From positions 1 through 60,996 of IMG/VR virus record IMGVR_UViG_3300026512_000014: a DNA stretch of 60,996 bases; one strand, given 5' to 3'. The translations under genes and the position numbers were made by a program. This document shows, piece after piece, positions 1 through 45,530 of the stretch. Every line of letters starts with the position of its first letter. Within the stretch, counting starts at the first letter, position 1. This stretch comes from a virus. The notes beneath the pieces were generated by a model. The model worked only from the letters and a program-made list of their open reading frames with translations. It was not told the origin of the DNA and did no database searches.

Positions 1-508
1 CTTTGTTATTGAACCATTGAAGCATCTCAAGATTTGACAATACAGAATTAAGTGTATTATCAAATCCATTATCTTCAAAGAACAATACTCTCTTCGCACC
101 TGACTTGGTGAAGAGAGGAATCATTCCATCTATTCTATTCTCTAAAGCATACTTATAAGCATACTTTAAAGAATTAATATCATTTAACTTCCCGTCTTCA
201 AAGTCAATAATCATATTGTCGGGAAGTATATTCTCCTCGGTTAAAGCATCAATAATATTAGGCCTATAAGCCTTTAATACTTTAACCATCTTATCAATAT
301 CCATTTGGTATTCATATACCTGCTTATTTGTAACTCTATACAAATAAGCCTTGCGAAGAAGTTTTATATACTTCTTCGCATAATTTTTGGTATCAATGCC
401 ATTTAAACGCATATGATACCAGTCAAGAATCACTCTCCATATTTTCTGGTTAGCGGTTACAATTTTCCCACTCAAAATTTCTTCTGCAATTTCCCTAAAA
501 TTCTTCAT
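1..508 (-). CDS. Unknown protein, N-terminal 169 residues (gene runs off the left edge)
   Basis: Reading leftwards from an ATG at 506-508, the frame is open to the window edge. The start is supported by GGAG a few bases upstream. The protein begins MKNFREIAEEILSGKIV and is mixed in charge, with many Lys, Tyr and Asn and no signal peptide or membrane segment. I recognise no domain. A promoter-like motif (TATGAATAGTC on the + strand, 559-569) lies about 50 bases upstream, as it does before the next gene, so both may share the same control. It is the last visible gene of the leftward arm; the function is unknown. Confidence 0.8.
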   Translation of the reverse strand, partial: MKNFREIAEEILSGKIVTANQKIWRVILDWYHMRLNGIDTKNYAKKYIKLLRKAYLYRVTNKQVYEYQMDIDKMVKVLKAYRPNIIDALTEENILPDNMIIDFEDGKLNDINSLKYAYKYALENRIDGMIPLFTKSGAKRVLFFEDNGFDNTLNSVLSNLEMLQWFNNK

Positions 509-1232: not shown

Positions 1233-1276
1233 AGGACACTCCTTAAAGTTTATTTAGCGCCGAAATCGACGCCATA

Positions 1277-1287
1277 TATGAGTAGTC
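1277..1287 (-). promoter_or_regulatory. Candidate phage promoter motif, copy 2
   Basis: TATGAGTAGTC on the + strand, 45 bases upstream of the ATG at 1232. It differs from copy 1 at one position. Confidence 0.45.
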
Positions 1288-1344
1288 AATATTAAAATAA
1301 AGTTATAAATTGTGCAGATATATATTAAAGAAACCTGAATAAGT

Positions 1345-1446
1345 TTAAAAAAAAGAAAAGACGAAGGCGGGGATTTGTGAATACTCTCATATAGCAATCC
1401 CCGAACTATATGAGAGATGAGGATAAAGGGAAGGAAAGCCTTCATT
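1345..1446 (-). ncRNA. Candidate small RNA with an H-type pseudoknot
   Basis: Read on the - strand, an outer 6-bp stem (GAAGGC at 1443-1438 with GCCTTC at 1368-1363) encloses an 11-bp perfect hairpin (1416-1406 with 1394-1384). The loop of that hairpin contains GGGGATT (1402-1396), which pairs perfectly with AATCCCC downstream (1375-1369), giving an H-type pseudoknot. A promoter-like motif (1447-1457) sits immediately upstream and a U-rich run (TCTTTTCTTTTTTTT) follows the closing stem, like a terminator. Expression and function are inferred; the pairings are read directly from the sequence. A 63-aa frame crosses it but has no ribosome site. Confidence 0.55.
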
Positions 1447-1457
1447 TATGAATAGTC
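1447..1457 (-). promoter_or_regulatory. Candidate phage promoter motif, copy 3
   Basis: TATGAATAGTC on the + strand, identical to copy 1, directly upstream of the pseudoknot RNA candidate and far from any coding start. Confidence 0.45.
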
Positions 1458-1768
1458 AAGTATAAAACATAATTATAAGAAAACAAAAGAGTTATAAAAA
1501 AACGGGATTATATATATTCTTAATTCCATAATAATAACTATATTAATACCATATAATAATTAATAACACTATAAATAAAACTGCTATATTATTAAAACTA
1601 AACAACAAATATCTATCTCTAACATATAAAAGGACTTACACAAAAGCGGCTCTATTAATCTTTTATTCTTAATACTATTTTTCCTTACCAAATATATATA
1701 TAAATATAAAACAAAACTATATAAACACTATATAAATAATACACAACATTATAAAGTATCACATATAG

Positions 1769-1893
1769 CCATATACAACTATACAGTATCATACACAATC
1801 ATATACATACCATATACAATCATATATAGTGTCATATACAATCATATACAGTCATATACGGTCATATACATACTATATACAGTGTCATATACA
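1769..1893. repeat. Iteron-like array of 10-bp repeats
   Basis: Copies of CATATACAAT, CATATACAGT and CATATACGGT start at 1811, 1821 (variant), 1833, 1843, 1853 and 1863, with degenerate copies on both sides. The exact 10-base step puts each copy on the same face of the helix. It could be a replication-initiator or regulator binding array. It is too short and lacks the spacers of a CRISPR. Confidence 0.55.
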
Positions 1894-2177
1894 GGTGGTC
1901 ACACACGCCGCTAACGCTCAAGAAGGGACACATAAGAGAGAAACAACCAAATCAAAAACGGCATTATATACCAAACCACACACAATTACACACAACCACA
2001 CAGACAGCAACTCTCTGGTACCAAATATCTTTGGCCAACGGGCAAAAAGAAAGAAGAAAGAGAAAGGATACAAAGAGAAAGAAGAAAGAAAGACATATAC
2101 ACTCACACATACACTCGTATACACACATACTCACACAAACACAACCAACTGCAAACACGGCACACAATTTCATTTGT

Positions 2178-2187
2178 AATATAGTCC
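2178..2187 (-). promoter_or_regulatory. Weak promoter-like motif, copy 4
   Basis: AATATAGTCC followed by GTGAGCGG resembles copy 1 (TGAATAGTCC followed by GAGCGG). No gene follows to the left for 950 bases, so any transcript would be non-coding. Confidence 0.25.
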
Positions 2188-2410
2188 GTGAGCGGTATGC
2201 ATACAAATGAAATACAAATAATTATCTAATAATATGTATACATACATTCATATATACAGTTTTATCTATATATATCAACGTATATATACACTATAATGTA
2301 TAATATTTAAACATATAGTAATTAATAACAAAAAAATATCACAAAAATGCTTATTTTTATAACTATATTTAAAATCAATCACTTAGTTTTTTATTTCCTA
2401 TATAGAAAAT

Positions 2411-2444
2411 AAAAAGACACGGTGTACAATATATATACACCGTG
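2411..2444 (-). terminator. Rho-independent terminator of the RNA polymerase gene
   Basis: CACGGTGTA (2418-2426) pairs with TACACCGTG (2436-2444), and on the - strand the stem is followed by UCUUUUUA. It lies just past the stop codon at 2472. Confidence 0.85.
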
Positions 2445-2471
2445 CCCTAAACTTAAAAAGTTAATAACTAA

Positions 2472-2876
2472 TTAAGACTCAAGATTGTCCTTAATAAGCC
2501 CCATAACCCGCTTACAATACTTGTCAGCCAGGTTATCTTTCCTTGGAATCTTAATTATGTCTATGTCAATGCGTTCATTAAGTGCATTAACAGTAGACAC
2601 ATAATGTTTAGTGATATCATTTTTGGCCTGCCATTCACCGGTAAGCCACTTGATAAGACCTTCATAGTCTACATAACAAGTGACTTTATCATAACCGTTA
2701 TCAATAGCAAACTTAATTGCCTCAATAACGGCCTGGCACTCACCAGCAACCTGTCTTGTATCAGAATCAACCTGTCCAAAATTAATATGGATAGTATCTT
2801 CCGATACATATGCCCAAAATGATTTACCGGGAATCTTATCAGTATAAGACCCGTCGCAATACATCTTTAACTCCAT
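2472..2876 (-). CDS. Possible separately translated RNase H (in-frame internal start)
   Basis: Within the polymerase gene, GGAGGT (2881-2886 on the + strand as ACCTCC) lies four bases before an in-frame ATG at 2876. Translation from there would give 134 aa, exactly the RNase HI domain: CDGS with D8, GECQAVIEA with E46, YVDYEG with D70, and ADKYCK with D118. The full-length frame is open across this point, so the domain may exist both fused and free. Alternatively, the sequence is chance within codons for Leu-Glu-Val-Asn. RNase H cleaves the RNA strand of RNA:DNA hybrids, so it could remove R-loops or primers. Confidence 0.5.
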   Translation of the reverse strand: MELKMYCDGSYTDKIPGKSFWAYVSEDTIHINFGQVDSDTRQVAGECQAVIEAIKFAIDNGYDKVTCYVDYEGLIKWLTGEWQAKNDITKHYVSTVNALNERIDIDIIKIPRKDNLADKYCKRVMGLIKDNLES

Positions 2877-5747
2877 GTTTACCTCCAAATTAGAAAACTG
2901 GTAGGCCACATCATGCAGCCTACCATTTTCATTAAGGTTATTAAAATGCTCCACGAATATATTAACTATATTCTTTGGAGCAATACTAAAGAACGCACTA
3001 TCAGAAACCTTTGATGAGAGGAATGCCCAACAGACTTCCTCTTTAATACCAAGTTGCTTGGACAAGTTTCTGATATATCTATGGGTTTCTACACCAAGAG
3101 TATATATAGCCACGTTAACCAGCGATAATATCTCTTCTTCTCTATCAGATTCCACTCTTTTAACATAAGAAACCATCGACATGAAGAGATTGAACATCTG
3201 ACCAACAAGATAAAAACGTGGCCAATACTCTTTATTATTGGATAACTTGTTATACTGCTTTACAAGGCCGTTGGTATAAATCCAATCCTGATATATATAT
3301 CTATATGAGAAACCAACAACCTTGGAAGTCCATCTTGTGAATTTACCTCTGATGTCTTGTATATGAACTTCAGCAGTACCAAAGTCTTCATCAGACTTTA
3401 CAAGTTCTCCAAACCTTGTACACCACTTATGCAGAACAGACATATAATGTGCAAATAATTTATGAATCTGTTCCGTACCAGTAAATGCACTATACACACA
3501 AGAAAGTCTCCTCAAAGCAGAGATACTAATACCACGAAACTCCTTCAGTACAGCCCTAAATGTATCAACTTTCACAAATATTTTAGAGTTTTCAACATAA
3601 TAAATCTTCCTCACGAAAGCATCCACTCTGGCCTGTATCTCTGCCGGTGTAAGCAGACCCTCAATGTTCTTCTTCTGTGCATTAATAACCCCTTGTTGTT
3701 GAGCAAAGAGGAACTCAATGAGTTCATATGCTTCTTTAATCAACTTAGGGTTACGAAGAGGTTTAATGGGAATAACTCTGTCGCCTATTTGTACCTCTCC
3801 AGCACCAGTAAGAAAAGCATGTATCTGGTCTGCAAATCTTTCAACCATACCGATATGCGCATCATATTGTAAAGCAATAAACAAATGCAAATCGGATACG
3901 GTTTTAATGTAAGCAGGAACCTCAGGTAGTTTCACATGTGCAAGTGGCGCCACAGGACAACTCCTCAAGCACTTCAAAAACTCACCACTAAACAGGGTTA
4001 TATCATCACCATCAAAATCATGTCCACTCAACACCCTATGTGGCGCATTCATATGCATAAATGCAAAACTACCAAGGCCTTCATCATTAATAACAACATA
4101 CTCAGCAGGACAGTCTCCAGTGAAGGTAACTGGATTCTTATATACTCCTACCTTATATGCCCCATCTGCAACAGATGGTAAATCAAGACCGCTTACATTG
4201 GCAATGATGATTCTATCAATAGGATATAACTTCCTGCCAATATATACCCTTGCACCCTTGGTAATAAAACCAAGACCATGGATATATGCTTTAAAAGCAT
4301 CCATAGGCAAGGATGTAGCGGTACAAGTTGTACCTTTCTTTGTTGCAGACAAGTCGACAGTGAAGAGCCTGCGCACATAACCTTTAATAATAGTAGCAGC
4401 GTTGTCTTTGCGCAATACCTTTAAATTACCAGGCAATCCCATTTTAACTGCAACGCCATAAGGTGTAGAAATGCTGGCATTCTTTACAAGCAGGTCTATA
4501 TTGAATTTCGTATTGTCTCTCAACACCTCAACTGCTTTAGCATTATCGAAATTCCAATGATAGAACACGAACTGCTGCGACAACTGTGCACCTGCTTTAT
4601 AATCGGTATCAGTTTTCATCACCAGAAATTCATCTGGTGTGAAACTAAGCCCTTCCATATCCCCAACCAATGCATCTTGGTTGAGAATAATATCTGTCTT
4701 CTTCACCCATTTAGGACCAAGTCCCTCTGCAAGTTTCTCCCATACGGGTTCAGAAACTTCAACAAAAGTACCTTTGGCCCACAACTTGTTAGAAAAACTA
4801 ACAAGTGTGCCTTGAAAAGCAGTAAATGTATTAAACTTCGATGCTTTAGATAATCTCTTCAAGACACCTGGACGAAACCAAGCAACTACGCCGTCTGCTT
4901 CAGGAACACTGATAGCAGCGGCTTTAAGTTTTCTGTTCCCAACAAGAGGCATACCTTGCCTAAGCAAAAGTACACCAATCTTTGAGAACACCTTAAAATT
5001 TAAACTGCTGTTAATATAGTTGTCATTAACATAAGATATAATACCCATAACAGCAGCAACCTCACGAACCAAATCTTCAAGACGCATTTTCTTTGTTGTA
5101 TATATAATTCTGGATGCACCAGACTTGGGAGCAAATAATACTACTTGCTCAAGGTTTGTGTTATTAACAATTTTAAGTCCCTTTTCGGGTTTACCGCCAG
5201 ACAATACGTCAAGAACATTCCTGACTAAATCACGTCTGGTCAATAAATCCTTGTCAAGAGACTCATCATCCACCGCAATCTCAAAAGACAAGGTGTCAAG
5301 CATTAAATGCTTGAACTTATCATAATGCATATCCAAGACAGTTGGTCTATCCCAGATGTACCTTGTCTCTTCCGTGAGAGTATACTCCACATCATTTGTC
5401 CTCTCAATGACAATGAATCTTCTTTCGAAGATATCAAAGCCTTGAGAAGCAAACTTACGGATTGCTCTCTTGGAAAACCTCTGCCCTGCGATGAACGCAT
5501 ATGCCTGTTGTTGCAAATTAATATTTGTTATAACCTCAGGCAATGTTGCAGCGTTACACACTCTTGCGAGTTGTGCCGCTACTGCGAACCTCGCATAAGA
5601 GAAACGATTGATGAACCTGACCAATGTTGTTACAACCATCTTTGTAAGACGGCTGTTCTCTTCCTCTTTAGCAGAGTCGAGGAATGCGATAAACTTCCTT
5701 GCGAACTTGTTCATCGTATGGATTACAGAATCAATAAGATTCAACAT
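2472..5747 (-). CDS. Single-chain DNA-dependent RNA polymerase (double-psi beta-barrel type) with C-terminal RNase H domain
   Basis: This 1091-aa protein carries HDFDGDD with the three Asp at 577, 579 and 581, the metal-binding signature of the beta'-like barrel of cellular-type polymerases. About 40 residues upstream is KNP (537-539), where cellular enzymes have NRxP. The layout resembles YonO and crAss-like phage polymerases, in which one chain does the work of beta and beta'. Residues 958-1091 form an RNase HI domain with all four acidic residues (D965, E1003, D1027, D1075). I place the start at 5747, not the in-frame ATG at 5783, because AGGAGG sits six bases before it. It lies in the leftward arm away from virion genes, so is probably made after infection. 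An internal ribosome site precedes the RNase H domain. The polymerase call is firm; promoter specificity is unknown. Confidence 0.88.
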   Translation of the reverse strand: MLNLIDSVIHTMNKFARKFIAFLDSAKEEENSRLTKMVVTTLVRFINRFSYARFAVAAQLARVCNAATLPEVITNINLQQQAYAFIAGQRFSKRAIRKFASQGFDIFERRFIVIERTNDVEYTLTEETRYIWDRPTVLDMHYDKFKHLMLDTLSFEIAVDDESLDKDLLTRRDLVRNVLDVLSGGKPEKGLKIVNNTNLEQVVLFAPKSGASRIIYTTKKMRLEDLVREVAAVMGIISYVNDNYINSSLNFKVFSKIGVLLLRQGMPLVGNRKLKAAAISVPEADGVVAWFRPGVLKRLSKASKFNTFTAFQGTLVSFSNKLWAKGTFVEVSEPVWEKLAEGLGPKWVKKTDIILNQDALVGDMEGLSFTPDEFLVMKTDTDYKAGAQLSQQFVFYHWNFDNAKAVEVLRDNTKFNIDLLVKNASISTPYGVAVKMGLPGNLKVLRKDNAATIIKGYVRRLFTVDLSATKKGTTCTATSLPMDAFKAYIHGLGFITKGARVYIGRKLYPIDRIIIANVSGLDLPSVADGAYKVGVYKNPVTFTGDCPAEYVVINDEGLGSFAFMHMNAPHRVLSGHDFDGDDITLFSGEFLKCLRSCPVAPLAHVKLPEVPAYIKTVSDLHLFIALQYDAHIGMVERFADQIHAFLTGAGEVQIGDRVIPIKPLRNPKLIKEAYELIEFLFAQQQGVINAQKKNIEGLLTPAEIQARVDAFVRKIYYVENSKIFVKVDTFRAVLKEFRGISISALRRLSCVYSAFTGTEQIHKLFAHYMSVLHKWCTRFGELVKSDEDFGTAEVHIQDIRGKFTRWTSKVVGFSYRYIYQDWIYTNGLVKQYNKLSNNKEYWPRFYLVGQMFNLFMSMVSYVKRVESDREEEILSLVNVAIYTLGVETHRYIRNLSKQLGIKEEVCWAFLSSKVSDSAFFSIAPKNIVNIFVEHFNNLNENGRLHDVAYQFSNLEVNMELKMYCDGSYTDKIPGKSFWAYVSEDTIHINFGQVDSDTRQVAGECQAVIEAIKFAIDNGYDKVTCYVDYEGLIKWLTGEWQAKNDITKHYVSTVNALNERIDIDIIKIPRKDNLADKYCKRVMGLIKDNLES

Positions 5748-5827
5748 TCCATACCTCCTTTCCTTCCCTCCGTTAATTACCATGACGCATAAGCGTCAAC
5801 CAACAACGCACAGTTGTTTTGTTCTCT

Positions 5828-7086: not shown

Positions 7087-7100
7087 TATTACCTCCTTCC
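7087..7100 (-). promoter_or_regulatory. Orphan extended Shine-Dalgarno, leader B
   Basis: GGAAGGAGGTAATA on the - strand, about 80 bases upstream of the start at 7010, without a start codon at usual distance. It directly follows the structured leader. Confidence 0.55.
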
Positions 7101-7264
7101 ATAAGTGCCACCTGACACGTGTTCATACACATGCACACATCAGTGTCAACTTATAATCGTACGTGTACGTGTACGTTATCTTCATAATGCAATGCTTACG
7201 TGTACTTAACAAATAACTTAAACATTGCAATCCTCTCAAAAACGAGGTAACGTACACGTCATAG
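7099..7264 (-). ncRNA. Structured leader RNA, copy B
   Basis: On the - strand a perfect 12-bp outer stem (7259-7248 with 7178-7167) encloses a CCTC/GAGG hairpin (7247-7232) and a stem TGCAATG/CATTGCA (7229-7223 with 7194-7188). Downstream, ATAAGTTGACAC (about 7155-7144) pairs with GTGTCA and ACTTAT nearer the orphan ribosome site (7087-7100). The element is related in sequence and pairing to copy A (8424-8626), with changes in the stems mostly keeping pairing, as expected for a conserved RNA structure. Role as a cis-acting regulator or stabiliser is inferred. Confidence 0.6.
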
Positions 7265-7273
7265 AATTATAGA

Positions 7274-7297
7274 TAAAAAGGGGTCCCGAAGGGCCCA
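7274..7297 (-). terminator. Rho-independent terminator
   Basis: The - strand reads GGGCCC-TTC-GGGACCC (one bulged A) followed by CTTTTT. It follows the gene remnant at 7319-7462. Confidence 0.75.
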
Positions 7298-7318
7298 ACA
7301 GAAAATGCAAATTAATTA

Positions 7319-7462
7319 TTATTCTTCATGAAGTCCTAATGCTACTGCGACCAAATAGTCATAATAGCATTGATACCCATTGGAAAACATGTGCTCAAGC
7401 GCAATCACTATATTGGTCGCACTTGCTTCTTTCAAAGACTTTTCATCTTCTCTATATATCAC
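7319..7462 (-). pseudogene. Truncated remnant of the small paralogue family
   Basis: The 47-codon frame, open from a GTG at 7462, ends EASATNIVIALEHMF...DYLVAVALGLHEE. This aligns with the C terminus of the 185-aa protein at 6453-7010 (ITAADIAKVLYRIF...DYLIADALGVHKEE). A TAG lies just upstream in frame, there is no ribosome site, and the N-terminal domain is absent. It still has its own terminator, so it looks like a gene that lost its 5' part. Confidence 0.6.
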
Positions 7463-8410: not shown

Positions 8411-8424
8411 TATCACCTCCTTTC
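8411..8424 (-). promoter_or_regulatory. Orphan extended Shine-Dalgarno, leader A
   Basis: GAAAGGAGGTGATA on the - strand, about 65 bases upstream of the start at 8346 and directly after the structured leader. Confidence 0.6.
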
Positions 8425-8626
8425 ATAAGCGTCATCTGAGACACACTCATGCACACGCACACATCAGTGTTAACTTATAGTCATACGTGCACGTGCACGT
8501 TGTCTCCGTGATGCAATGCTTGCGTATACTTAAACAACTTGGGCATTGCAATCCCCTCAAAAACGGGGTTATTTTAATAAGCCCAATACGCAATCCTCTC
8601 ATAAACGAGGTAAACGTACACGCCAA
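8424..8626 (-). ncRNA. Structured leader RNA, copy A
   Basis: On the - strand GCGTGTACGTT (8623-8613) pairs with AACGTGCACGT (8501-8491), allowing two G-U pairs. Inside are a CCTC/GAGG hairpin (8610-8595), a second CCCC/GGGG hairpin (8568-8553) with a near-identical loop, and long-range stems TTGCGTA/TACGCAA (8593-8587 with 8526-8520) and TGCAATGC/GCATTGCA (8550-8543 with 8519-8512). Compared with copy B it has one extra hairpin module. The change of CCTC/GAGG to CCCC/GGGG keeps pairing. It precedes the four-gene unit 8346-7539. Confidence 0.6.
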
Positions 8627-8701: not shown

Positions 8702-8722
8702 AAAAAGGGGGCCGAAGCCCCC
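8702..8722 (-). terminator. Rho-independent terminator with UUCG loop
   Basis: The - strand reads GGGGGC-TTCG-GCCCCC followed by five T, ending the gene at 8742-9071. Confidence 0.9.
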
Positions 8723-8741
8723 AACAAAAAACACAAATTAA

Positions 8742-9071
8742 TTATGCACCTAAAACACCCAAAACATCATAAACATAAGGAGACATAATGTTTTGGTTCC
8801 ACGAGTTGCAAATAGCAATTGCAACTTGTGTCGCAGAAAAACCACTTGTTCTACTATTGTTATTAATTAACTCCATAACACTATCAACTCCTTTTTCAAA
8901 AACAATATTAAGAAGCGCATCATGTTCCTTATCAACATACGCTTCAAATTCTTCTTTTGTTCCTATAAACCAATCATAGGAACAAAAAGTATCTGTAATA
9001 ATAACATCACCATTCTCATCAACTTCGGTAATCCAATCTTCTACATAAAAAACAAAAATTTTCTTTTTCAT
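8742..9071 (-). CDS. Small unknown protein of the paralogue family (109 aa)
   Basis: The ATG at 9071 follows AAGGAG. Its N-terminal half matches the 115-aa protein at 6085-6432 (IFVFYVEDW..., then YDWFIGTKEEFEAYV). Its end (FSATQVAIAICNSW...VYDVLGVLGA) matches the shared C-terminal helical domain. It is acidic and soluble, a single-gene unit with its own leader and terminator. Function unknown. Confidence 0.75.
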   Translation of the reverse strand: MKKKIFVFYVEDWITEVDENGDVIITDTFCSYDWFIGTKEEFEAYVDKEHDALLNIVFEKGVDSVMELINNNSRTSGFSATQVAIAICNSWNQNIMSPYVYDVLGVLGA

Positions 9072-9226: not shown

Positions 9227-9250
9227 ATAAAAAAGGGCCCCGAAGGGCCC
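9227..9250 (-). terminator. Rho-independent terminator with UUCG loop
   Basis: The - strand reads GGGCCC-TTCG-GGGCCC followed by a T run, ending the gene at 9278-9778. Confidence 0.9.
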
Positions 9251-9277
9251 AACGGAAATACTAATGTTAATAAAAAA

Positions 9278-10771: not shown

Positions 10772-11392
10772 ATGGATAGATTCACGCCTGCAATAAATAA
10801 TCAAGGGATAACTGATAAGAATTACACTATATATAAATTCGGCACTGATGCCAAAATGTATATTGACGGGTTTTATATTAAAGAAGCAAATGCTATTATG
10901 TATAGAGAACATATAGACAGATTGCCTTACTTTGGTTATGACAGTCAATACTTTGATTATATATTAGAAGGCAGAAGTTATGTTTCAGGAACTATCGGAT
11001 TTAATGTATATACTCCTCAAGTATTTTATAAGATATTAAAAGCGCTTGGATATGATTATTATGTTTATAAAGAAAATAGCAAAGATAAAAGTCAATTAGA
11101 TGTATATTTTGATTCACAAGGTGAAGAAGAAATTATTGACATAATATTAAGTCAGGATTATAGTAAACCCAATGATGACTACGAAGATTTTACTTTACCG
11201 CCTAAATATTTTGATATTAGATTAGTAATACAAAATGAATTTGAAGAAATAGAACACGTGTTACTTATTAAAGATGTATATATATTAGGAATGCAAACTG
11301 CTTATAGTAAAGATGACCAGGTTATAGAGTTTTATAATTTTATTGCTAAAAGAATAAGTTCAACTGTTTATAAGGAGGGCGAATGGATATAG
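10772..11392 (+). CDS. Unknown 206-aa protein
   Basis: The ATG at 10772 follows GAGGAG at about 11 bases. The protein is rich in Tyr and Asp (for example YDYYVYKENSKDKSQL) and contains a likely beta sandwich. No family recognised. Its end overlaps the start of the protease gene by ten bases, so the two are co-translated. Being at the head of the packaging genes, a structural or head-assembly role is likely but unproven. Confidence 0.75.
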   Translation: MDRFTPAINNQGITDKNYTIYKFGTDAKMYIDGFYIKEANAIMYREHIDRLPYFGYDSQYFDYILEGRSYVSGTIGFNVYTPQVFYKILKALGYDYYVYKENSKDKSQLDVYFDSQGEEEIIDIILSQDYSKPNDDYEDFTLPPKYFDIRLVIQNEFEEIEHVLLIKDVYILGMQTAYSKDDQVIEFYNFIAKRISSTVYKEGEWI

Positions 11393-12105
11393 TTCAAAAA
11401 GATATTTATGAAGAAATGATATTGAAAAGCAGAAGCATATATATTACAAATAATATTACAATGGAAAATATGATTGAAGCAAAATTATTATTTGATAGGT
11501 ATAGAATGTTAAGCAATAAAGCGCCTATTCATATATATATTAATAGTCCTGGTGGAGAAGTTAATGCCGCATTTATGCTTGTTAATGATATTGTCTTACA
11601 TGATGTTCCTGTAATCACATATAACATAGGAGAAGCGGATAGTGCAGCGTCATTTATATTTATAAGCGGTAATACAAGAATTATGTATCCTCATAGTTCT
11701 ATTATGATGCATTCAGTAAGGGCAAACCCATATGGCACCACTACTAATATTAAACAATATACAAGTTTTCTTCATAAACTTGATGAATATATAATTAAGT
11801 TTATTAAAACACATACATTGCTTGATGATGAAACCATACATGATATAGTTGTTAATAATAAGGAACATTATTGGGTTGGTGATGAAGCAATAGAATATGG
11901 TCTTGCAGACCAACTATATCTTGGAACTGATTTTGTAGAACCCATATGTTCTGATAGGTCTGAATTTCATTTTGCATATTTAATAGATGAAGAAAAAGAA
12001 AGTGGAGATAATAATAGAGCAAACAAATTAAGAGAGGAATATTATAATGTCTCAATTAAAAGACATAGCAAAATTAAAAAAAGAAATACTAAAAAAGACA
12101 AATAA
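11383..12105 (+). CDS. ClpP-like serine protease
   Basis: 240 aa with a clear ClpP fold. IYINSPGGEV (51-60) is the oxyanion glycine strand, S87 in GEADSAASF aligns with the catalytic Ser, and H110 in PHSSIMMHSV with the catalytic His. GDEAIEYGLAD is the usual helix after the third active-site residue, where the expected Asp seems replaced by Glu in NKEHYWVG. Residues after about 205 form a basic extra tail. ClpP-like proteases in other phages cut head proteins during capsid maturation. Here a second, different protease is fused to the scaffold (22801-24126), so this enzyme may process other virion or cargo proteins. Confidence 0.88.
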   Translation: MDIVQKDIYEEMILKSRSIYITNNITMENMIEAKLLFDRYRMLSNKAPIHIYINSPGGEVNAAFMLVNDIVLHDVPVITYNIGEADSAASFIFISGNTRIMYPHSSIMMHSVRANPYGTTTNIKQYTSFLHKLDEYIIKFIKTHTLLDDETIHDIVVNNKEHYWVGDEAIEYGLADQLYLGTDFVEPICSDRSEFHFAYLIDEEKESGDNNRANKLREEYYNVSIKRHSKIKKRNTKKDK

Positions 12106-39000: not shown

Positions 39001-39960
39001 ATTGAAGCATATAAACATAAAGTTATACAAGGTAATGAGTCTGCTATATGGGGACATCCTTGGCGTGATTTTATAAGGCCATTTGTGGGGAGAATAGCGG
39101 GCTTATTTACAGATAAAGTTATGCCATGGGTAAAAAAACATAGACGTAATGAAATGTATCTTGATTATCTTAAATATGTAAAATATAGTAAAGCAGCAGA
39201 AATGTCTATGTACAGTGGCGATATACAAAATGCTTATAAATTCAAACAAATAGCATCAACAACAGCGGTTGCGGTAAACCCATATAAATCATTAATGGAA
39301 GTTTATCCTACACTTCCAAAAGAAGAACGTCCATATTTTATACACTTTGCAAAAGAAACAGATAAAGAAAGACGTAAAAAAATATTAGAAATGACATCAC
39401 CAATAATGAAACGTATATATAAAGCAAGATGGGAGTTATTAGATTATGCAAAAGCAAAAGAGGAATATGAAAAAGGAAAACTATCAGAAGAAGAATTCAA
39501 AAAGTTTAAAGAAAAAGTAAAACAACATATTGCACATGCAGAAGAAAGAGAAGAAGAATTATTTAGCCCAGAAATATTAAGTGAAGTAAAACAACTCCCT
39601 GAAACATATGGCAATGAATATACTGTTCCATTAACACAATGGGAAGGATATAGTCCACGTGTATCAATGACAGAATTAAAAGTTGGATTTCTTGAGTCAA
39701 TTGGCGAAGACCCAATAGATTACCGTATTCCTAAAAAAGAAATATTAAGATTAAACCATAAAGAACCAGAAGAATATTTTAGCAATATATCAATGTTTGA
39801 TAAAATTGATATGGGAATATATAATATGGGATTCAGTAATTTAAAACATAGATTAAAAAATATAATATATAATCGCAATGGGAGTGATAATTTACAACAA
39901 CATGTTTATACAATCGAATATAGACCAAAAATTAAATACGCATTTGAGAGGCATAATTAA
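36043..39960 (+). CDS. Tape-measure or injected virion protein candidate (1305 aa)
   Basis: The frame opens at an ATG at 36043, 32 bases inside the previous gene, with a weak ribosome site. It lies where a tape measure is expected, directly after the chaperone pair. Two hydrophobic segments are visible near residues 400-430 (SLGVAFGNIMMAGINTYIG) and 505-530 (TAMIIAGILSIPNVIFG). The C-terminal third is charged and helical (EEYEKGKLSEEEFKKFKEK), and the middle is Pro- and Tyr-rich. No peptidase or lysozyme motif seen. Alternatively, it is a cargo protein that accompanies the polymerase encoded next. Confidence 0.6.
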   Translation: MLPNKISQEYKDRPPKQVGPLHYLRSRVRNPNNIRVSPSVAAYKKARDDNERLLNYVSPLTTAALKTTVPLYFLSQIKDIDITSQTIRNWYLSQPFNNIYKNYPFPTEAEARNATIKVGDVIHQLFVNLESFASPISWLQPSSSLSPFLIPTSNKSLVISPQQIKKDIKYWKEVIDKANYPGFFDSIKTELLESGIIVENGVPKINNALRTVVAPRAKFVQKILELNTRRQVSQTWLAYRVKNKAGYHPGSYRESFNILLGKSTADIYYKWFKAQVRAYSLRYFRLLDDPLEFLSSFIGFETGVERTALYKSFKNKFGVGGAKYYGESLYKLWLRHIGLVGKNIILPLIAAKYTHEKLKDIHIESGIFTPIAYTGATLDIGRSIYGKPFKAIADVGDKFVPGMSSLGVAFGNIMMAGINTYIGARLFQSIRTSETYEAFYNIANTFTPLNKKGLEWLRPLSKIQQKAYLREKVKYEIPELLKKFMPSKLGEFIEKRIGSVSHMGKAARTAMIIAGILSIPNVIFGTARLLGGEKDTSTLIQEYTGHKNVPVYQSHDWLFGQQYRGGEFAAYMGPNWFQRMIHDYRGKTLWRNNESAEFRTLKSIPIIQDIIKPYYLEETNFKHQPYPITGPTTSFLGPIGPLYGATLGQLFKPTKYMFPEQWALTQKDALKKYEQEKIPTAIYQQTVAPIQPHQQSVMQEVYGTPLNEPFIFDVTKPARGKGIEPLISPYSAPILTAQAISAWQETIGLPGYISRLLVTNPEEWYSQYNVLPSASEINSLSEQYYYMNLGDYGQTEAWRRIVILQNAARKEYNMIQNDQPEWMPDEGFYIKFRHGDPYRQIYRGYERIPGPGLTERKEFANLKGVEYKNYPLSARLLILGDIAMTSDHFKQTYMVVDKLVKEGKATKDEEAALKRVRSEFIQKISSRKFLPYSNKEDLLQWSSLNPIKGVFRLAQTLEELIVHASSPLSELLPVAPKEKFSIHETPIEAYKHKVIQGNESAIWGHPWRDFIRPFVGRIAGLFTDKVMPWVKKHRRNEMYLDYLKYVKYSKAAEMSMYSGDIQNAYKFKQIASTTAVAVNPYKSLMEVYPTLPKEERPYFIHFAKETDKERRKKILEMTSPIMKRIYKARWELLDYAKAKEEYEKGKLSEEEFKKFKEKVKQHIAHAEEREEELFSPEILSEVKQLPETYGNEYTVPLTQWEGYSPRVSMTELKVGFLESIGEDPIDYRIPKKEILRLNHKEPEEYFSNISMFDKIDMGIYNMGFSNLKHRLKNIIYNRNGSDNLQQHVYTIEYRPKIKYAFERHN

Positions 39961-42900
39961 TGGCTAAAGATTTTTGGGATTATTTAGGTGAAACAATATC
40001 AACTGTCGGATTTGGATATGCAGCAGTTAGTTCTGCAAAAAACGTATATAAATCAAAAGAGTTTAAAGAAGCACTAAATAATTTTCAACACTATGTGTCT
40101 GGAGATAAAAAACAAGTAGTTGAAACCATTATAGAAGAGCCAGTAACACAAACTGTTACAAACAAAGCAACAACTAAATCAGCAGAAGATGTCGCTTCTG
40201 TATCAAAGAAAATGATAAATCAACAAAAAGAAATACAAGAAAAATTTATAAGTTTATATGATGACATAGCACGTAGTATGCATAAAGTTAACAGAACGTC
40301 TATGAATATTTTTAAAGAATATATTCCAGAAGACAAAATGCTTATAGAAGAAGAACTACCATATATTAAAAAGTTTCATGAAAAATTTAATGCAAAAGTA
40401 AATGAAAATATACAATCTCTTATTGAAACTAATTTAGAAAGAATAACACTTAATTTAAACTTAACAGAAGACCAAAGGAAAATTATTAAAAAAACAAGTG
40501 ATATTAGAAAAGAAATGTCTCTTATGCAAAAAGGATATTTCATAAAAGATATATATGGAGATGAAGAAGCGGGAAAAGCATTAATTAAACAAGCAGAATC
40601 ATTATTAAAAAAGAAAATAGTAGAAAGTTATAAACTAATTGATATAAAAAATATTGATGATGTTGAAATGTTATCGTCTCAAATACACAAGTCGTTATCA
40701 AATCTTGCAGGGTTATTAAAACCATTATCAGAAGATGATTCGCTTGTTTTTAGAGGTTTGTCAAAAACAAAACTTACAGAAACATTTGACAACATACCTG
40801 AAGTTATATCAAATGTGACAAGAGAAGAAGAACTTAACAAGTTATTTGAAGAAAGACATAATGTTACATTTGCAAACAGAGAACGGTTTAGTAATATAGA
40901 AAATATAATAAGCAAGCGTATTAATTTAAAAAAGATTGAAAAAGACATACAAAAAGGCAAAATGCCAATTAATTATATAGAAAAACAAAAAAAGAAAATG
41001 CTTAAAGATATAAATCAAGAAGTAATAGATATGTATAAGGGTATGTATAACAAAGCCATTGGCAGGCAGCAAAAGGCTTCTGAATATTATAATGCATTAA
41101 TTAAAGGAATTGAAGAAACCTCGTCTCCAGATTTTTCTTTTCAAGTAATCAATAAAGATGATACAAAATTATATATAGAAGATATTAATACATTCCTCGA
41201 TAAATTAAAAGAAAAAACAAAAGTAAGTAAAGATGTTCAAATACAAATAAACAAAGCAAAATCAACTATAAATTATTTTAATGAAATGTATAGAAATACT
41301 AATATAGAAGTTGTACCAGAATTATATTTTGAAACAGAAAAAGGAATTGAATCAATTGCTGGTACCATTAAGTTAAAACAAAAAGGTAAAAACAAGATAT
41401 TTGGCGAAATTGATATTGACATTGCAAACAACAAAGGATTATTAAGACGTGGCGATTCAATATATGTAGAACATCCACTTGCTAAACTATATACAGATGA
41501 TAAAGGAAGAAGAATATATGAAACAGTTTCAAAAGAAGAAGCAATAACACAAAAATTTCAAAGAACTGTAAGTGATTTAATGAGACAGGGTTATACACAG
41601 CAAGAAGCAATCAAAGTCGCATCAGAAGAAGTTAATAAATTTTCTATGTCTACATTAGAATGGATTGCGCCAAGAAGTATATATGATTATTACAAAGATA
41701 TTGAAACACCCGCCGTTAAGATAGCAAAAAGTAATTATAAAATACTTAATCCGGTAACATATGAGCCATATAATTTTTTCAATACAGAACAAATGTATAG
41801 CGAAGAAGGTGTTATTTTAAGAAAGCAAATTGGCTGGAAAAATGGGAAAAAGATATTCAAAGAGATGCCAATTGATTTTGAAAAAGTATATATATCAACA
41901 CCAAGCCAATTATATAAAAGTCTTGTTCCATTAGAAGGAATATACAATGAAACATATGGGTTATATTATAATCCAAACGAATTAAAGATATACAGGAATA
42001 CAGCAGTTGTTAAAAACTTATTATTTGAAGAAGAAAAAGGGTTGTTTAAACCAAAAGTATTCTTTGGTGATTATAATATCAAAACAGAAACAGGCGAAAT
42101 TAATTTATTATCAAAATTACAAGAAACAGCGTCAAAAATAAACGAAGAACAATTTGATAAAGAAACAAGAGAATTTATCAAAAGATTAAGAAAATTGCCC
42201 ATAATATCTGAAGACCAGTCAGCAATATTAAATAAAAATTTAGAAGATATGATTATAGGCAATTATGTATCAATGAAAGATGTTACATTAGAATCATTAA
42301 ATCTTAAGAAGGTATCAACACCAGAAGCACTTGAACTTGGATTTAAAGAAGAATTATTTAAATTATCAAAAGGTGAAAGAATTATAGTCAATAATAAGCC
42401 CTATAAATTGCCATCTGATTTATTTGTTACAAAAGCAATATATGAAGATGTACAAAAAGGTGTAAGAAATAAAATAACAACTGGTGTTTTAGAAGGAATG
42501 TTTGTTACAAATCTTGAAGAAGCATTACCAAAGTTTTTTGGTGTTGGTGGCTACAAGGTGTTAACTCCATTTAAAGTTGACACGGACATAGCAACATTAC
42601 TAATGAAACTTGGTTCAAACTCTGATGCAAGAAAATTTGTAGAAGATTATTTAGCAAAAAATCCAAATGATTTTGAAGGTCTTATAAAAGCAATATCACA
42701 AAATAGACAAATATTATTTGATTTTTCTTCTTATGTTGAAGATATGCCACATATTTTTTCTACTACTAAATCTGTCAAAAGTAATTTAAGAGGTGTTGGA
42801 ACACTATTTGATATATTAAAAAATAGCACAACACCAGAACAAAGAAAAACATTTGAACAATGGATGCAATCATTAGATATTAATGCAGGAACAAAAGCAG

Positions 42901-45530
42901 AATACTATGTCCAGGTGTTAGACAAGATGTTTAAAGATGAGTCTATGATTAAAAATGCACCAAAAATATTTGGACAAAAACTTGGTAATAGAATAGTAGA
43001 ACTTGCAAAAGAATATAAGAATCCAGACGGTGTCAAGAATATTGATTATGTTATGAGTATGACAAGAAAACTTCTTGCCGGTCAATCTGGGACATTAACA
43101 TCAGGTATATTAAACCAGGATATTCTTGTCGGAGACCTCGGAACATTTAACAGAGATGTATTTAGATATCTTGAAGAAAAAGCAAAACTTAATAATAAAT
43201 TTTATGGTAAATTTTTAGATACTCTTGAATCTTCACGTATCATAAACAGAACAAGAAGTCTTCAAACAATACAAGCATTTGCAGATGTTATAAAACAAAA
43301 AGATGCGGCAAATGCGGTTACATTAGATTTGCTTGAAAACAGAATATTATCACCACAAGGTGAAGTAATTGCAAAAGGACAAGCCGTTACAGATATTATA
43401 GAAGGATTGAAAAATTCAAAAAAAGCAGAAGAAAATCTAAAAGCACATAAAGACTTATATAATCTTTTAGAAGAAAAAGGATTTAACACATCTGTATTTA
43501 AAATAAAGAACACAAAAGAAACAAAATTAATGCCAATTCTTGCAGATGAGTTTAACTATCTAAAAGATATATTACAAAAAGGTAAAACAGAAATAGAAAT
43601 AGCAGGTGAAGTTGTATCAGAAGAAAATATAGTTTCAATTGTATCAAAAATTAGGTCATCATCGGCAAGATTTATTAGAGGATTTGCATCAAACAAAAAA
43701 GAATCAGAACAATTATATAATACATTTATACAAAACTTACGTGAATCATTTACATCTAAAAATAATTTAAGTAAGTTAATGTTTGAAGCAAGACCATTGG
43801 AGTCAATGCATGCAACAGCAGTATATGCACCACATTTAAAAACATCTGAATATGTAGAAAAACAAGTAAACAGGCTTGTCGAGACCATACAAAAAAGTGA
43901 CAATGCAGAAGAAATAATAAAACTCGCAGAAGAAGAGGGGTTAAGTTTAAAAGAATTTATAAAATCAAAAGCAGTTGTTGTTAATGCTGACCAATTAGAA
44001 CATGCAATAAGAAAAATACCTAAAGTTGAAAAACCAGACTTTATATTTAGTTTAATGACAAGATATCCAGTAGGTTCACCACAATCATTACAAACACACT
44101 TTGTTATAGGTGCACCAAAAGATATTATAGAAGAAGGAAGAGTTGCATTTTTGTCAAGAGCATCAATGAGTGCAGCATATGGTGATTATGATGGAGACAC
44201 ATTGCATTTTGTATTCACCAATATATCAAAAAATGAAGCAGAAAAAGGCGCATTAAATGATGCTGTTAAGTCATTAATAGACGAACATGTATTAAATAAA
44301 TCATTTGAAAAAGTACAAGAAAAAGTTAACAAAGGTATATCTGATGTCTTGGCAATGAAAGTTGCAGATGGTGGAACTATAACTGATGTTACAAAAGTAT
44401 TAAACGAACAGAAAATAACAGAAAAGGTATTAATAGGAAATATAACAAATATCATTAATAGAATATTTATAGCATCATCATATGGTACCAAAGATGCATC
44501 TCCATATGTTACGTCACAAATATTACATACTATTATGGAAAGAATTATTAAATCTAAAAAGAATATTTCAAATACAGAACAAATAGGTGAAATAACTAAA
44601 AATCTTTATCAAGTTCTTGATAAAATGTTAAGCGAAGGCACTTCTCCCGAACTACAAGATTCATTGTACAAGAACTTATCAAAATTTTTTGAGATGGCTG
44701 AATTTAAAAACACAACAAGCAAAGAAAACACAGAGTTAATGAGTGCATTTATAAATAGTTTAAAAGATTTAACAAAAACACAAGCACTCAATGACGACAT
44801 GTTAAATTATGTTAATAATCTTATAGGCGAACTTGAAAATGCAAAAACAGGAAGCGCAGATTATGTTGCAAAATTGTTAACAGAACATATATCAAATAAT
44901 ATAGACAAATCAAGAGAAGATATACAAAATTATATAAATATGTCAACCAAAAGAGTTCCAGAAACACCATTAGACCCAGCGGGTGTAAGAGCCCAAAAAG
45001 AAAGAATTAATGCAGAAAAGAGAGCGGCCGCTGCAAACATGTCAAATGATGCAGCAAGAGCAGCAGAGGAGGCAGCAGAAACAACAAAGAATACAGCAAA
45101 ACAAGCAACAAGAGTTGCTGAAGAAGCAAAAACAACACAAAGAGTAGTTGAGCAATCTTATAAACTCGGTGAAGATGTTATGAAACCATTATATAAGGCA
45201 ATATCTAAATCTGGATTTCTTAAAAAATCAATGTATGTTGGCCTTGGGATACTCGGCTATGAGGTTGCCAAAAATGTTATGACCGGTTGGGGACAAGATA
45301 AATTTGAAATACCAATTGCTGCAAAATCTGCATCTGAAATTGACCCATCATTAACAGATAATTATGATGTTATACATGTTGGTAATCCAACATTTGATAT
45401 TCATCTTGATAGTATCATAGATACAATATCATCTAAACGTGGTATAATGAAATTCGTGAATGGATTAACCGGTGAAGATTCTGTAAAAGTTACATTATAT
45501 GATAAACGTAATAATAGGAGATATATTTAA
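39960..45530 (+). CDS. Virion-module RNA polymerase (double-psi beta-barrel type, 1856 aa)
   Basis: GDYDGDTLHF has the three catalytic Asp at 1409, 1411 and 1413. About 40 residues upstream RYPVG (R1368, P1370) aligns with the NRxP motif of cellular beta', and the segment between (THFVIGAPKD, then VAFLSRASMSAAY) fits the barrel. The same arrangement occurs in crAss-like virion polymerases. The N-terminal 1200 residues are mostly helical without a clear match. The C terminus has an Ala-rich coiled coil, then a hydrophobic segment near 1755-1770 (MYVGLGILGYEVAK) and a basic end. It sits among tail genes, so is probably packaged and injected to transcribe early genes. Distinct from the polymerase at 2472-5747. 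Confidence 0.8.
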   Translation: MAKDFWDYLGETISTVGFGYAAVSSAKNVYKSKEFKEALNNFQHYVSGDKKQVVETIIEEPVTQTVTNKATTKSAEDVASVSKKMINQQKEIQEKFISLYDDIARSMHKVNRTSMNIFKEYIPEDKMLIEEELPYIKKFHEKFNAKVNENIQSLIETNLERITLNLNLTEDQRKIIKKTSDIRKEMSLMQKGYFIKDIYGDEEAGKALIKQAESLLKKKIVESYKLIDIKNIDDVEMLSSQIHKSLSNLAGLLKPLSEDDSLVFRGLSKTKLTETFDNIPEVISNVTREEELNKLFEERHNVTFANRERFSNIENIISKRINLKKIEKDIQKGKMPINYIEKQKKKMLKDINQEVIDMYKGMYNKAIGRQQKASEYYNALIKGIEETSSPDFSFQVINKDDTKLYIEDINTFLDKLKEKTKVSKDVQIQINKAKSTINYFNEMYRNTNIEVVPELYFETEKGIESIAGTIKLKQKGKNKIFGEIDIDIANNKGLLRRGDSIYVEHPLAKLYTDDKGRRIYETVSKEEAITQKFQRTVSDLMRQGYTQQEAIKVASEEVNKFSMSTLEWIAPRSIYDYYKDIETPAVKIAKSNYKILNPVTYEPYNFFNTEQMYSEEGVILRKQIGWKNGKKIFKEMPIDFEKVYISTPSQLYKSLVPLEGIYNETYGLYYNPNELKIYRNTAVVKNLLFEEEKGLFKPKVFFGDYNIKTETGEINLLSKLQETASKINEEQFDKETREFIKRLRKLPIISEDQSAILNKNLEDMIIGNYVSMKDVTLESLNLKKVSTPEALELGFKEELFKLSKGERIIVNNKPYKLPSDLFVTKAIYEDVQKGVRNKITTGVLEGMFVTNLEEALPKFFGVGGYKVLTPFKVDTDIATLLMKLGSNSDARKFVEDYLAKNPNDFEGLIKAISQNRQILFDFSSYVEDMPHIFSTTKSVKSNLRGVGTLFDILKNSTTPEQRKTFEQWMQSLDINAGTKAEYYVQVLDKMFKDESMIKNAPKIFGQKLGNRIVELAKEYKNPDGVKNIDYVMSMTRKLLAGQSGTLTSGILNQDILVGDLGTFNRDVFRYLEEKAKLNNKFYGKFLDTLESSRIINRTRSLQTIQAFADVIKQKDAANAVTLDLLENRILSPQGEVIAKGQAVTDIIEGLKNSKKAEENLKAHKDLYNLLEEKGFNTSVFKIKNTKETKLMPILADEFNYLKDILQKGKTEIEIAGEVVSEENIVSIVSKIRSSSARFIRGFASNKKESEQLYNTFIQNLRESFTSKNNLSKLMFEARPLESMHATAVYAPHLKTSEYVEKQVNRLVETIQKSDNAEEIIKLAEEEGLSLKEFIKSKAVVVNADQLEHAIRKIPKVEKPDFIFSLMTRYPVGSPQSLQTHFVIGAPKDIIEEGRVAFLSRASMSAAYGDYDGDTLHFVFTNISKNEAEKGALNDAVKSLIDEHVLNKSFEKVQEKVNKGISDVLAMKVADGGTITDVTKVLNEQKITEKVLIGNITNIINRIFIASSYGTKDASPYVTSQILHTIMERIIKSKKNISNTEQIGEITKNLYQVLDKMLSEGTSPELQDSLYKNLSKFFEMAEFKNTTSKENTELMSAFINSLKDLTKTQALNDDMLNYVNNLIGELENAKTGSADYVAKLLTEHISNNIDKSREDIQNYINMSTKRVPETPLDPAGVRAQKERINAEKRAAAANMSNDAARAAEEAAETTKNTAKQATRVAEEAKTTQRVVEQSYKLGEDVMKPLYKAISKSGFLKKSMYVGLGILGYEVAKNVMTGWGQDKFEIPIAAKSASEIDPSLTDNYDVIHVGNPTFDIHLDSIIDTISSKRGIMKFVNGLTGEDSVKVTLYDKRNNRRYI

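What the first reader, a model, noticed from the sequence alone, without database searches (positions are those of the whole stretch)
2472..5747. Single-chain RNA polymerase carrying its own RNase H domain
One open frame holds a double-psi beta-barrel polymerase core (KNP, then HDFDGDD with Asp 577, 579, 581) and, at 958-1091, a complete RNase HI domain with all four acidic residues. Polymerase and RNase H activity on one chain would let the enzyme clear RNA:DNA hybrids it makes, or process primers. I know of no described family with this combination.
Basis: partly seen in the sequence, partly recalled or inferred. Interest (0 to 1): 0.88.

Follow-up and report, generated by a model that had tools for sequence, protein, structure and literature searches.

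The report
Phage RNA polymerase joined to RNase H
An uncultured large phage carries one long gene whose first part looks like a very divergent one-piece RNA polymerase and whose tail end is an RNase H enzyme that also has its own built-in start signal, so the cell may make both a joined protein and a free RNase H.

Summary
One uninterrupted minus-strand ORF (start 5747, stop 2472; 1091 aa) carries a polymerase-type motif (KNP, then HDFDGDD) and a C-terminal RNase HI domain. The RNase H is certain by profile. The polymerase assignment rests mainly on the catalytic motif plus two weaker anchors; no library, BLAST or AlphaFold run confirmed the two-barrel fold (both models pLDDT about 32). Two things change the picture. 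(1) The RNase H begins exactly at an internal ATG (2876) behind a perfect Shine-Dalgarno (GGAGGTAAACATG), and both other frames hold a TAA just upstream. Free 134-aa RNase HI is therefore probably made, the join may be recent, and a one-base error would separate the genes. (2) The same contig carries a second polymerase-like giant ORF (39960-45530, GDYDGD) in its tail module, resembling a structural protein of Bacillus phage KLEB27-3. This suggests a virion plus a non-virion RNA polymerase, as in Thermus phage P23-45. Single-chain two-barrel phage RNA polymerases are known; I found no description of one joined to RNase H. Verdict: probably a new variant of a known kind; tethered joint function is unproven.

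The parts
2472..5747 (-). ORF joining polymerase-like region (residues 1-957) and RNase HI (958-1091), 1091 aa
5753..5760 (-). Shine-Dalgarno AAGGAGGT of the long ORF
4767..4781 (-). WAKGT: candidate DPBB-B lysine anchor, 252 residues before the Asp triad
4131..4139 (-). KNP, candidate start of the catalytic barrel (DPBB-A)
4002..4022 (-). HDFDGDD, catalytic Asp triad (D577, D579, D581 of the 1091-aa protein)
2881..2886 (-). internal Shine-Dalgarno GGAGGT in front of the RNase H
2472..2876 (-). RNase HI: C-terminal domain of the long ORF and, from its own ATG at 2876, probably a free 134-aa protein
2890..2892 (-). TAA in another frame just upstream of the internal Shine-Dalgarno; would end the polymerase if one base were gained or lost
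39960..45530 (+). 1856-aa ORF with RYP...GDYDGDT (DYDGD at 44184-44198): candidate virion RNA polymerase
2..508 (-). 169-aa ORF cut by the contig end; KSGA.R motif shared with residues 208-213 of the 1091-aa protein; possible third polymerase, not significant

Best explanation
The ORF encodes the phage's own non-virion RNA polymerase: a very divergent single-chain two-barrel enzyme of the broad YonO / QDE-1 / P23-45 kind, in which the Asp triad of HDFDGDD binds the catalytic Mg2+ and a Lys from the other barrel holds the substrate (inferred). Translation runs on in frame into an RNase HI, so a 1091-aa polymerase-RNase H is made. A strong internal ribosome-binding site also gives free 134-aa RNase HI from the same message (inferred from sequence). 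The polymerase would transcribe phage genes after a virion polymerase (candidate 39960-45530) has started infection. The RNase H, tethered or free, would remove RNA from RNA:DNA hybrids, namely R-loops behind the polymerase and replication primers. Shown: the open frame, the RNase H homology, the Asp-triad motif, the internal start signal. Inferred: fold, activities, both products, division of labour.
For: RNase H. Polymerase: a core HMM from 15 other phage two-barrel candidates, window excluded, puts the window protein first of 1078 sequences (itself, 77 other window ORFs, 1000 shuffles), E=4.6e-4. The three-anchor layout ([RK].P, KG, DG at set distances) is present in the window protein, in 13 of 20 places I had labelled polymerase-like or unassigned, and in 0 of 35 other DxDGD places (27 ORFs). 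The closest single relative found, L230, aligns over the region before the motif (QGT..S...KGT..V..P), 16 of 1000 shuffles as good. Internal start: GGAGG-N4..10-ATG occurs 22 times on both strands, 17 at ordinary ORF starts; one is exactly at the RNase H start; chance in frame within 5 codons about 0.0014. Second polymerase: DYDGD ORF similar to KLEB27-3 gp034 'structural protein' over 106 aa around the motif, blastp E=0.007. Precedent for a vRNAP plus nvRNAP pair found through DxDxD: PMC10770324.
Against: With the DFDGDD motif masked the profile match falls to rank 35 of 1002, so the sequence signal is nearly all motif; profiles of family (a) alone and of YonO-like proteins alone gave weak or no signal. 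A DPBB-B-only profile does not find the window protein. Both AlphaFold runs failed. Eleven of twelve relatives show no alignment beyond shuffles upstream of the motif. The fourth RNase H acid is not aligned. The anchors were chosen after seeing the sequences. A KLEB27-3/G001 profile did not find the second polymerase candidate above shuffles.
Confidence: 0.55

Rival explanations
1. Two ordinary neighbouring genes, polymerase and free RNase HI. The join is an assembly or sequencing error, or a very recent loss of the stop in this one virus, without functional meaning.
For: Perfect own ribosome-binding site and ATG for the RNase H; a TAA in each of the other two frames 16 and 5 nt before that ATG, so one base gained or lost separates the genes; 0 of 9 RNase H relatives is joined to a polymerase; Moorella phage MTATph1, a terminase relative, has a free RNase H gene; no obvious linker before the RNase H start.
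Against: The assembled frame is open for the whole 1091 codons and nothing else I saw in the window suggested frame errors (not tested systematically); stops in other frames are common in AT-rich DNA; one-base errors in assembled contigs are rare (general knowledge).
Confidence: 0.22
2. One reading: one bifunctional enzyme made only as the joined chain, in which RNase H clears the hybrids or primers that the polymerase makes.
For: Continuous frame; RNase H profile; order polymerase then nuclease as in reverse transcriptases (recalled).
Against: The internal start signal predicts a free form too. YonO already frees its transcript from the template, which was RNase H-resistant (PMC5467207), so hybrid clearing is not an obvious need. 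Fourth acid uncertain.
Confidence: 0.13
3. The N-terminal part is not a polymerase; HDFDGDD is a calcium-binding-type or chance DxDxDG motif in an unrelated protein.
For: Many ORFs with G.DFDGDD in the scans look like proteins of other kinds; the signal vanishes when the motif is masked; no fold confirmed.
Against: The motif sits in a polymerase-type frame, KNP 40 residues before the triad and KG 252 before, and 0 of 35 other DxDGD places share KG plus [RK].P; rank 1 of 1078; the phage has a second such ORF.
Confidence: 0.1

Closest known systems
P23-45 gp64 (nvRNAP) and gp96 (tape-measure-fused vRNAP), Thermus phage
   Same: Single-chain two-barrel RNA polymerases; gp96 was recognised by DFDGD in otherwise unrecognisable sequence; a virion and a non-virion enzyme in one phage (PMC10770324, passages read). 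A profile containing the window touches PDB 8h2n 'Tape tail measure protein' at the motif only (E 0.79); that 8h2n is gp96 is my inference.
   Different: 'RNase H' occurs 0 times in that paper; no significant sequence match measured.
YonO of Bacillus phage SPbeta and YonO-like phage polymerases
   Same: Single polypeptide of similar size with Asp triad; downstream layout in register with weak profile support (p 0.028).
   Different: blastp and phmmer find no homology; YonO reads FDNDGD; no RNase H in the YonO-like proteins aligned.
Phage two-barrel candidates with helix-turn-helix domains (family a: L058, L085, L071, L024, L028, L034, L070, L084)
   Same: RLSGADFDGDD, KG anchor, [VI]IDA.KH after the barrel compared with the window's VINAQK; weak Pfam RdRP match in 2 of 3 members scanned (L028 2.2e-4, L034 0.0099, both below the curated cut-off).
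   Different: HTH instead of RNase H; 16-19% identity in the trimmed alignment.
RNase HI of Herelleviridae (PHROG 531) and other firmicute phages and plasmids
   Same: 35-37% identity, same N-terminal boundary.
   Different: Free proteins; their fourth acidic residue is clear.
Bacillus phage 0305phi8-36 orf99
   Same: Large phage with a single-gene RNA polymerase of the RNAi polymerase family (PMC2147016, passages).
   Different: Not compared by sequence here; no RNase H join mentioned in the passages read.

Membership tests
single-chain two-barrel (DPBB) RNA polymerase | Asp triad DxDxD in the catalytic barrel | tested here: met
   HDFDGDD at 576-582 of the 1091-aa protein; profile rank 1 of 1078. 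The motif is met; that it lies in a barrel is not shown.
single-chain two-barrel (DPBB) RNA polymerase | second barrel with conserved Lys in the same chain | tested here: inconclusive
   WAKGT at the expected distance; aligned to L230 with 16 of 1000 shuffles as good, but the DPBB-B profile does not find it
single-chain two-barrel (DPBB) RNA polymerase | two double-psi beta-barrels in the structure | tested here: inconclusive
   AlphaFold pLDDT 32.8 and 32.3
single-chain two-barrel (DPBB) RNA polymerase | bridge-helix segment after the catalytic barrel | tested here: inconclusive
   IG, about 55 aa, VINAQK, in register with YonO-like and family (a) segments; downstream alignments not better than shuffles
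single-chain two-barrel (DPBB) RNA polymerase | template-dependent RNA synthesis | not testable with these tools
   needs protein
YonO orthologue | detectable sequence homology to YonO | tested here: not met
   blastp best E 4.7, phmmer none
RNase HI | RNase H fold by profile | tested here: met
RNase HI | first three catalytic acids (Asp, Glu, Asp) | tested here: met
   D965, E1003, D1027
RNase HI | fourth catalytic Asp | tested here: inconclusive
   Met at that place when aligned through DKY; D1075 in NLAD nearby
RNase HI | cleaves RNA in RNA:DNA hybrids | not testable with these tools
   needs protein

The most novel reading that the evidence does not exclude
A phage two-barrel RNA polymerase that carries a working RNase HI on its own C-terminus and also makes RNase HI free from an internal start. 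It would be a transcriptase, and perhaps replication primase, able to remove its own hybrids or primers, with the ratio of tethered to free nuclease set by translation, working beside a separate virion polymerase.
Probability: 0.25. Interest if true: 0.78.

Novelty: new variant of a known kind. Interest (0 to 1): 0.55.

Why it matters
If the join is real and active it would be, as far as I could find, the first two-barrel polymerase with RNase H on the same chain. It would make testable how phage one-piece polymerases deal with RNA:DNA hybrids and whether such enzymes prime replication. Independently of the join, the contig adds a very divergent candidate pair of virion and non-virion single-chain RNA polymerases, a group held to bear on the origin of cellular RNA polymerases.

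Tried and rejected
Direct relatives: tblastn of the whole ORF in 50,697 phage records found 281 records, the 40 listed all at the RNase H end; the first 957 residues found only spurious argininosuccinate lyase matches at E about 1 or more in phages, and those plus two other weak matches in plasmids. The search for related loci with the protein found nothing in IMG/VR. HDFDGDD as a DNA pattern gave 12 stretches, none a relative. A KNP-gap-DGD pattern gave 2 chance hits.

AlphaFold: the single-sequence run and a 10-sequence alignment of residues 275-800 in 1103-aa numbering both failed; no fold search was run because low-confidence models give meaningless matches. In both hand-trimmed alignments the closest relative L230 was misaligned in the first barrel.

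Paralogy of the cut ORF 2-508: a KSGA.R motif is shared, but blastp E is 1.9 or worse, 137 of 500 shuffles are as good, and hhalign of it with YonO-like proteins gives nothing; kept as a hint only.

Moorella phage MTATph1 as carrier of a similar polymerase: its only DxDGD pattern match lies in a primase ORF.

Calcium-binding reading of DFDGDD: kept as a rival, disfavoured. L178, first noted as polymerase-like, was put in the other group after Pfam showed Ig domains.
Full report
What the window is. The window is a whole IMG/VR record of 60,996 bases: a fragment of a large contractile-tailed phage with terminase (16453-18300; PHROG 2 E=2.5e-32), portal, capsid and sheath (PHROG 16991). Rfam finds nothing and there are no tRNAs. 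Its terminase is about 31% identical to those of Moorella phage MTATph1 and Acinetobacter phage ME3 and 24.5% to Bacillus phage KLEB27-3, and 32% to an IMG/VR contig of 234 kb, here G001. Strong GGAGG ribosome sites fit a firmicute-like host (inference).

The ORF. The frame 2472-5783 is open for 1103 codons.

RNase H. Residues 958-1091 match RNase H in every library tried: PDB 2kq2 E=1.6e-10, Pfam RVT_3 7.8e-9, PHROG 531 5.3e-15, NCBIfam ribonuclease HI 1.6e-7, below that model's cut-off. Three Staphylococcus phage RNases H are 35-37% identical. Asp 965, Glu 1003 and Asp 1027 are conserved. At the fourth acidic place the relatives have DKYND..D.LAK and the window DKYCKRVMGLIK: a Met, unless Asp 1075 of NLAD takes over as in the PR..N..AD pattern of archaeal-type enzymes (recalled; the PDB 4e19 match stops just before it). 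From recall, the fourth acid is the least strict in E. coli RNase HI.

The internal start. The sequence at the junction is CAGTTTTCTAATTTGGAGGTAAACATGGAG: a full Shine-Dalgarno at normal distance from an ATG that is the first residue of the RNase H domain, matching the N-termini of free phage RNases H. GGAGG followed by ATG at 4-10 bases occurs 22 times on the two strands. Seventeen are ordinary ORF starts, three lead to fewer than 30 codons, and two lie in frame inside long ORFs: this one and 23503 in the head-protease ORF. A first-order Markov model of the gene gives 0.40 such signals per gene length and about 0.0014 in frame within five codons of a given point. In both other frames a TAA lies 16 or 5 nt before the ATG. 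So a free RNase HI is probably made, and the data do not exclude two separate genes joined by a one-base error or a recent mutation. None of 9 RNase H relatives (6 of the last viral scan, and 3 phage records) continues upstream into a polymerase; 3 of 9 have an N-terminal extension of another kind.

The polymerase part. Nothing credible matches residues 1-957 in Pfam, PHROGs, PDB, phages or plasmids. YonO shows no homology by blastp or phmmer. Among them are several polymerase-like phage families: family (a), eight ORFs reading mostly RLSGADFDGDDVLVIP with HTH domains, of which two of the three I scanned have a weak Pfam RdRP match; L075/L230 (723 aa); and others. G001 holds three different polymerase-like ORFs of 1239, 913 and 2275 aa.

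Tests of relationship. hhalign of family (a) with the window protein aligns only the motif (p 0.0038). With YonO-like proteins it aligns the motif and the stretch after it, 107 columns, in register (p 0.028). A first core profile gave rank 1 of 1078 but E=0.038. A core profile from 15 relatives, window excluded, ranks the window protein first of 1078 with E=4.6e-4; eight other compositions or lengths of the profile gave rank 1 in six cases and not in two. In a second run against 1002 sequences the same kind of profile gave E=0.0017, family (a) alone 0.13 and YonO-like alone rank 25, and with the motif masked the window protein fell to rank 35. The profile of the other barrel does not find it. 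Local alignment upstream of the motif is better than chance only for L230 (z 2.9, 16 of 1000 shuffles), the best of 12 relatives tried, so about one result as good in six such sets would be chance. Over the whole proteins 60 of 400 shuffles of L230 were as good. A layout test asks for [RK].P 30-75 residues before the triad, KG 165-300 before and DG 200-345 before. The window has all three; so do 13 of 20 places in ORFs I had labelled polymerase-like or left unassigned, and 0 of 35 other DxDGD places in 27 ORFs; for [RK].P alone 17 of 20 and 3 of 35, those three all in one repetitive ORF. Shorter ORFs, and motifs within 300 residues of the start or 100 of the end, were dropped before that count, duplicates were merged, and the labels and patterns were set after seeing the sequences. 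Structure prediction failed twice. I rate the polymerase assignment about 0.85. That only the region around DxDxD is recognisable is usual in this superfamily: P23-45 gp96 was found by DFDGD, the rest showing no detectable similarity to known RNA polymerases, and was then shown to be active (PMC10770324, passages).

A second polymerase. Scanning the window ORFs for D.D[GNAYES]D gave four hits, among them the finding and the 1856-aa ORF 39960-45530: RYP, 37 residues, GDYDGDTLHFVF. It is 22.6% identical over 106 aa around the motif to KLEB27-3 gp034, annotated 'structural protein' next to a putative baseplate protein (blastp E=0.007; phmmer 9e-4 against three sequences). The window ORF lies between ORFs of 1305 and 1363 aa, the latter with an endolysin-type domain. 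A KLEB27-3/G001 profile did not pick it above shuffles. I read it as a candidate virion RNA polymerase, which makes the finding's ORF the candidate non-virion one. A third candidate, the cut ORF 2-508, rests on one motif only.

How it most likely works. Inferred: the virion enzyme starts transcription on entry; the 1091-aa enzyme takes over other phage genes; RNase HI, joined or free, removes RNA from hybrids at R-loops and replication primers. A jumbo-phage survey notes RNase H1 for primer removal in phages whose multisubunit polymerase may prime replication (PMC7824862, passages), which makes primer handling plausible. Against a strict need for a tethered nuclease, YonO leaves its transcript RNase H-resistant, i.e. 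released from the template (PMC5467207, passages).

What is known. Single-chain two-barrel phage polymerases are known: YonO (PMC5467207), YonO-like enzymes in jumbo phages (PMC7824862, passages and section 15 part 1), 0305phi8-36 orf99 (PMC2147016, passages), P23-45 gp64/gp96 and the crAss-like phi14:2 gp66 (PMC10770324, passages). Fusions of phage polymerases of this superfamily to other domains are known (HD phosphohydrolase on a multisubunit group 1 subunit; tape measure). My searches for a join with RNase H (PMC open-access full text; listings and starts of abstracts seen) found none; subscription journals and preprints were not searched.

Verdict. Real ORF, real RNase H, probable polymerase, with a join that is probably genuine but may be recent and is likely accompanied by free RNase H. 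A new variant of a known kind; interest 0.55.

Noticed in passing
window 22801-24126, internal start 23503: The head-maturation-protease-like ORF (PHROG 18299) has a strong in-frame GGAGGAGTTAAG-ATG giving a 207-aa C-terminal product, as in protease/scaffold gene pairs (lambda C/Nu3, recalled).
   Followed up: partly
window 7087-7209 and 8411-8533; 7276-7319, 8702-8745, 9230-9273: Repeated non-coding blocks in the early region: a 123-nt block in two copies (81%) and a 44-nt GC-rich palindrome-like element in three copies that may be a terminator.
   Followed up: no
window 1233-2471, especially 1750-1860: A 1.2-kb apparently gene-poor stretch after the polymerase gene with degenerate TATATGAC/GTATATGA repeats; function unknown.
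   Followed up: no
window 2-508: ORF cut by the contig end with KSGAKRVLF resembling KSGASRIIY of the polymerase ORF and SSAGQIR of YonO; possible further polymerase.
   Followed up: partly
G001 (IMGVR_UViG_3300033153_007973): L225 611-4327 (-), L229 4001-6739 (+), L227 3446-10270 (+): One 234-kb phage contig with three different DFDGD polymerase-like ORFs, one of which (1239 aa) carries beta-subunit-like GDKLADHHGNK and the catalytic motif on one chain.
   Followed up: partly
L058, L085, L071, L024, L028, L034, L070, L084: A family of phage two-barrel candidates; the three members scanned have helix-turn-helix domains near the N-terminus and at the C-terminus.
   Followed up: partly
window 11383-12105: ClpP-like protease gene (Pfam CLP_protease 1.8e-28) upstream of the head genes.
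   Followed up: no
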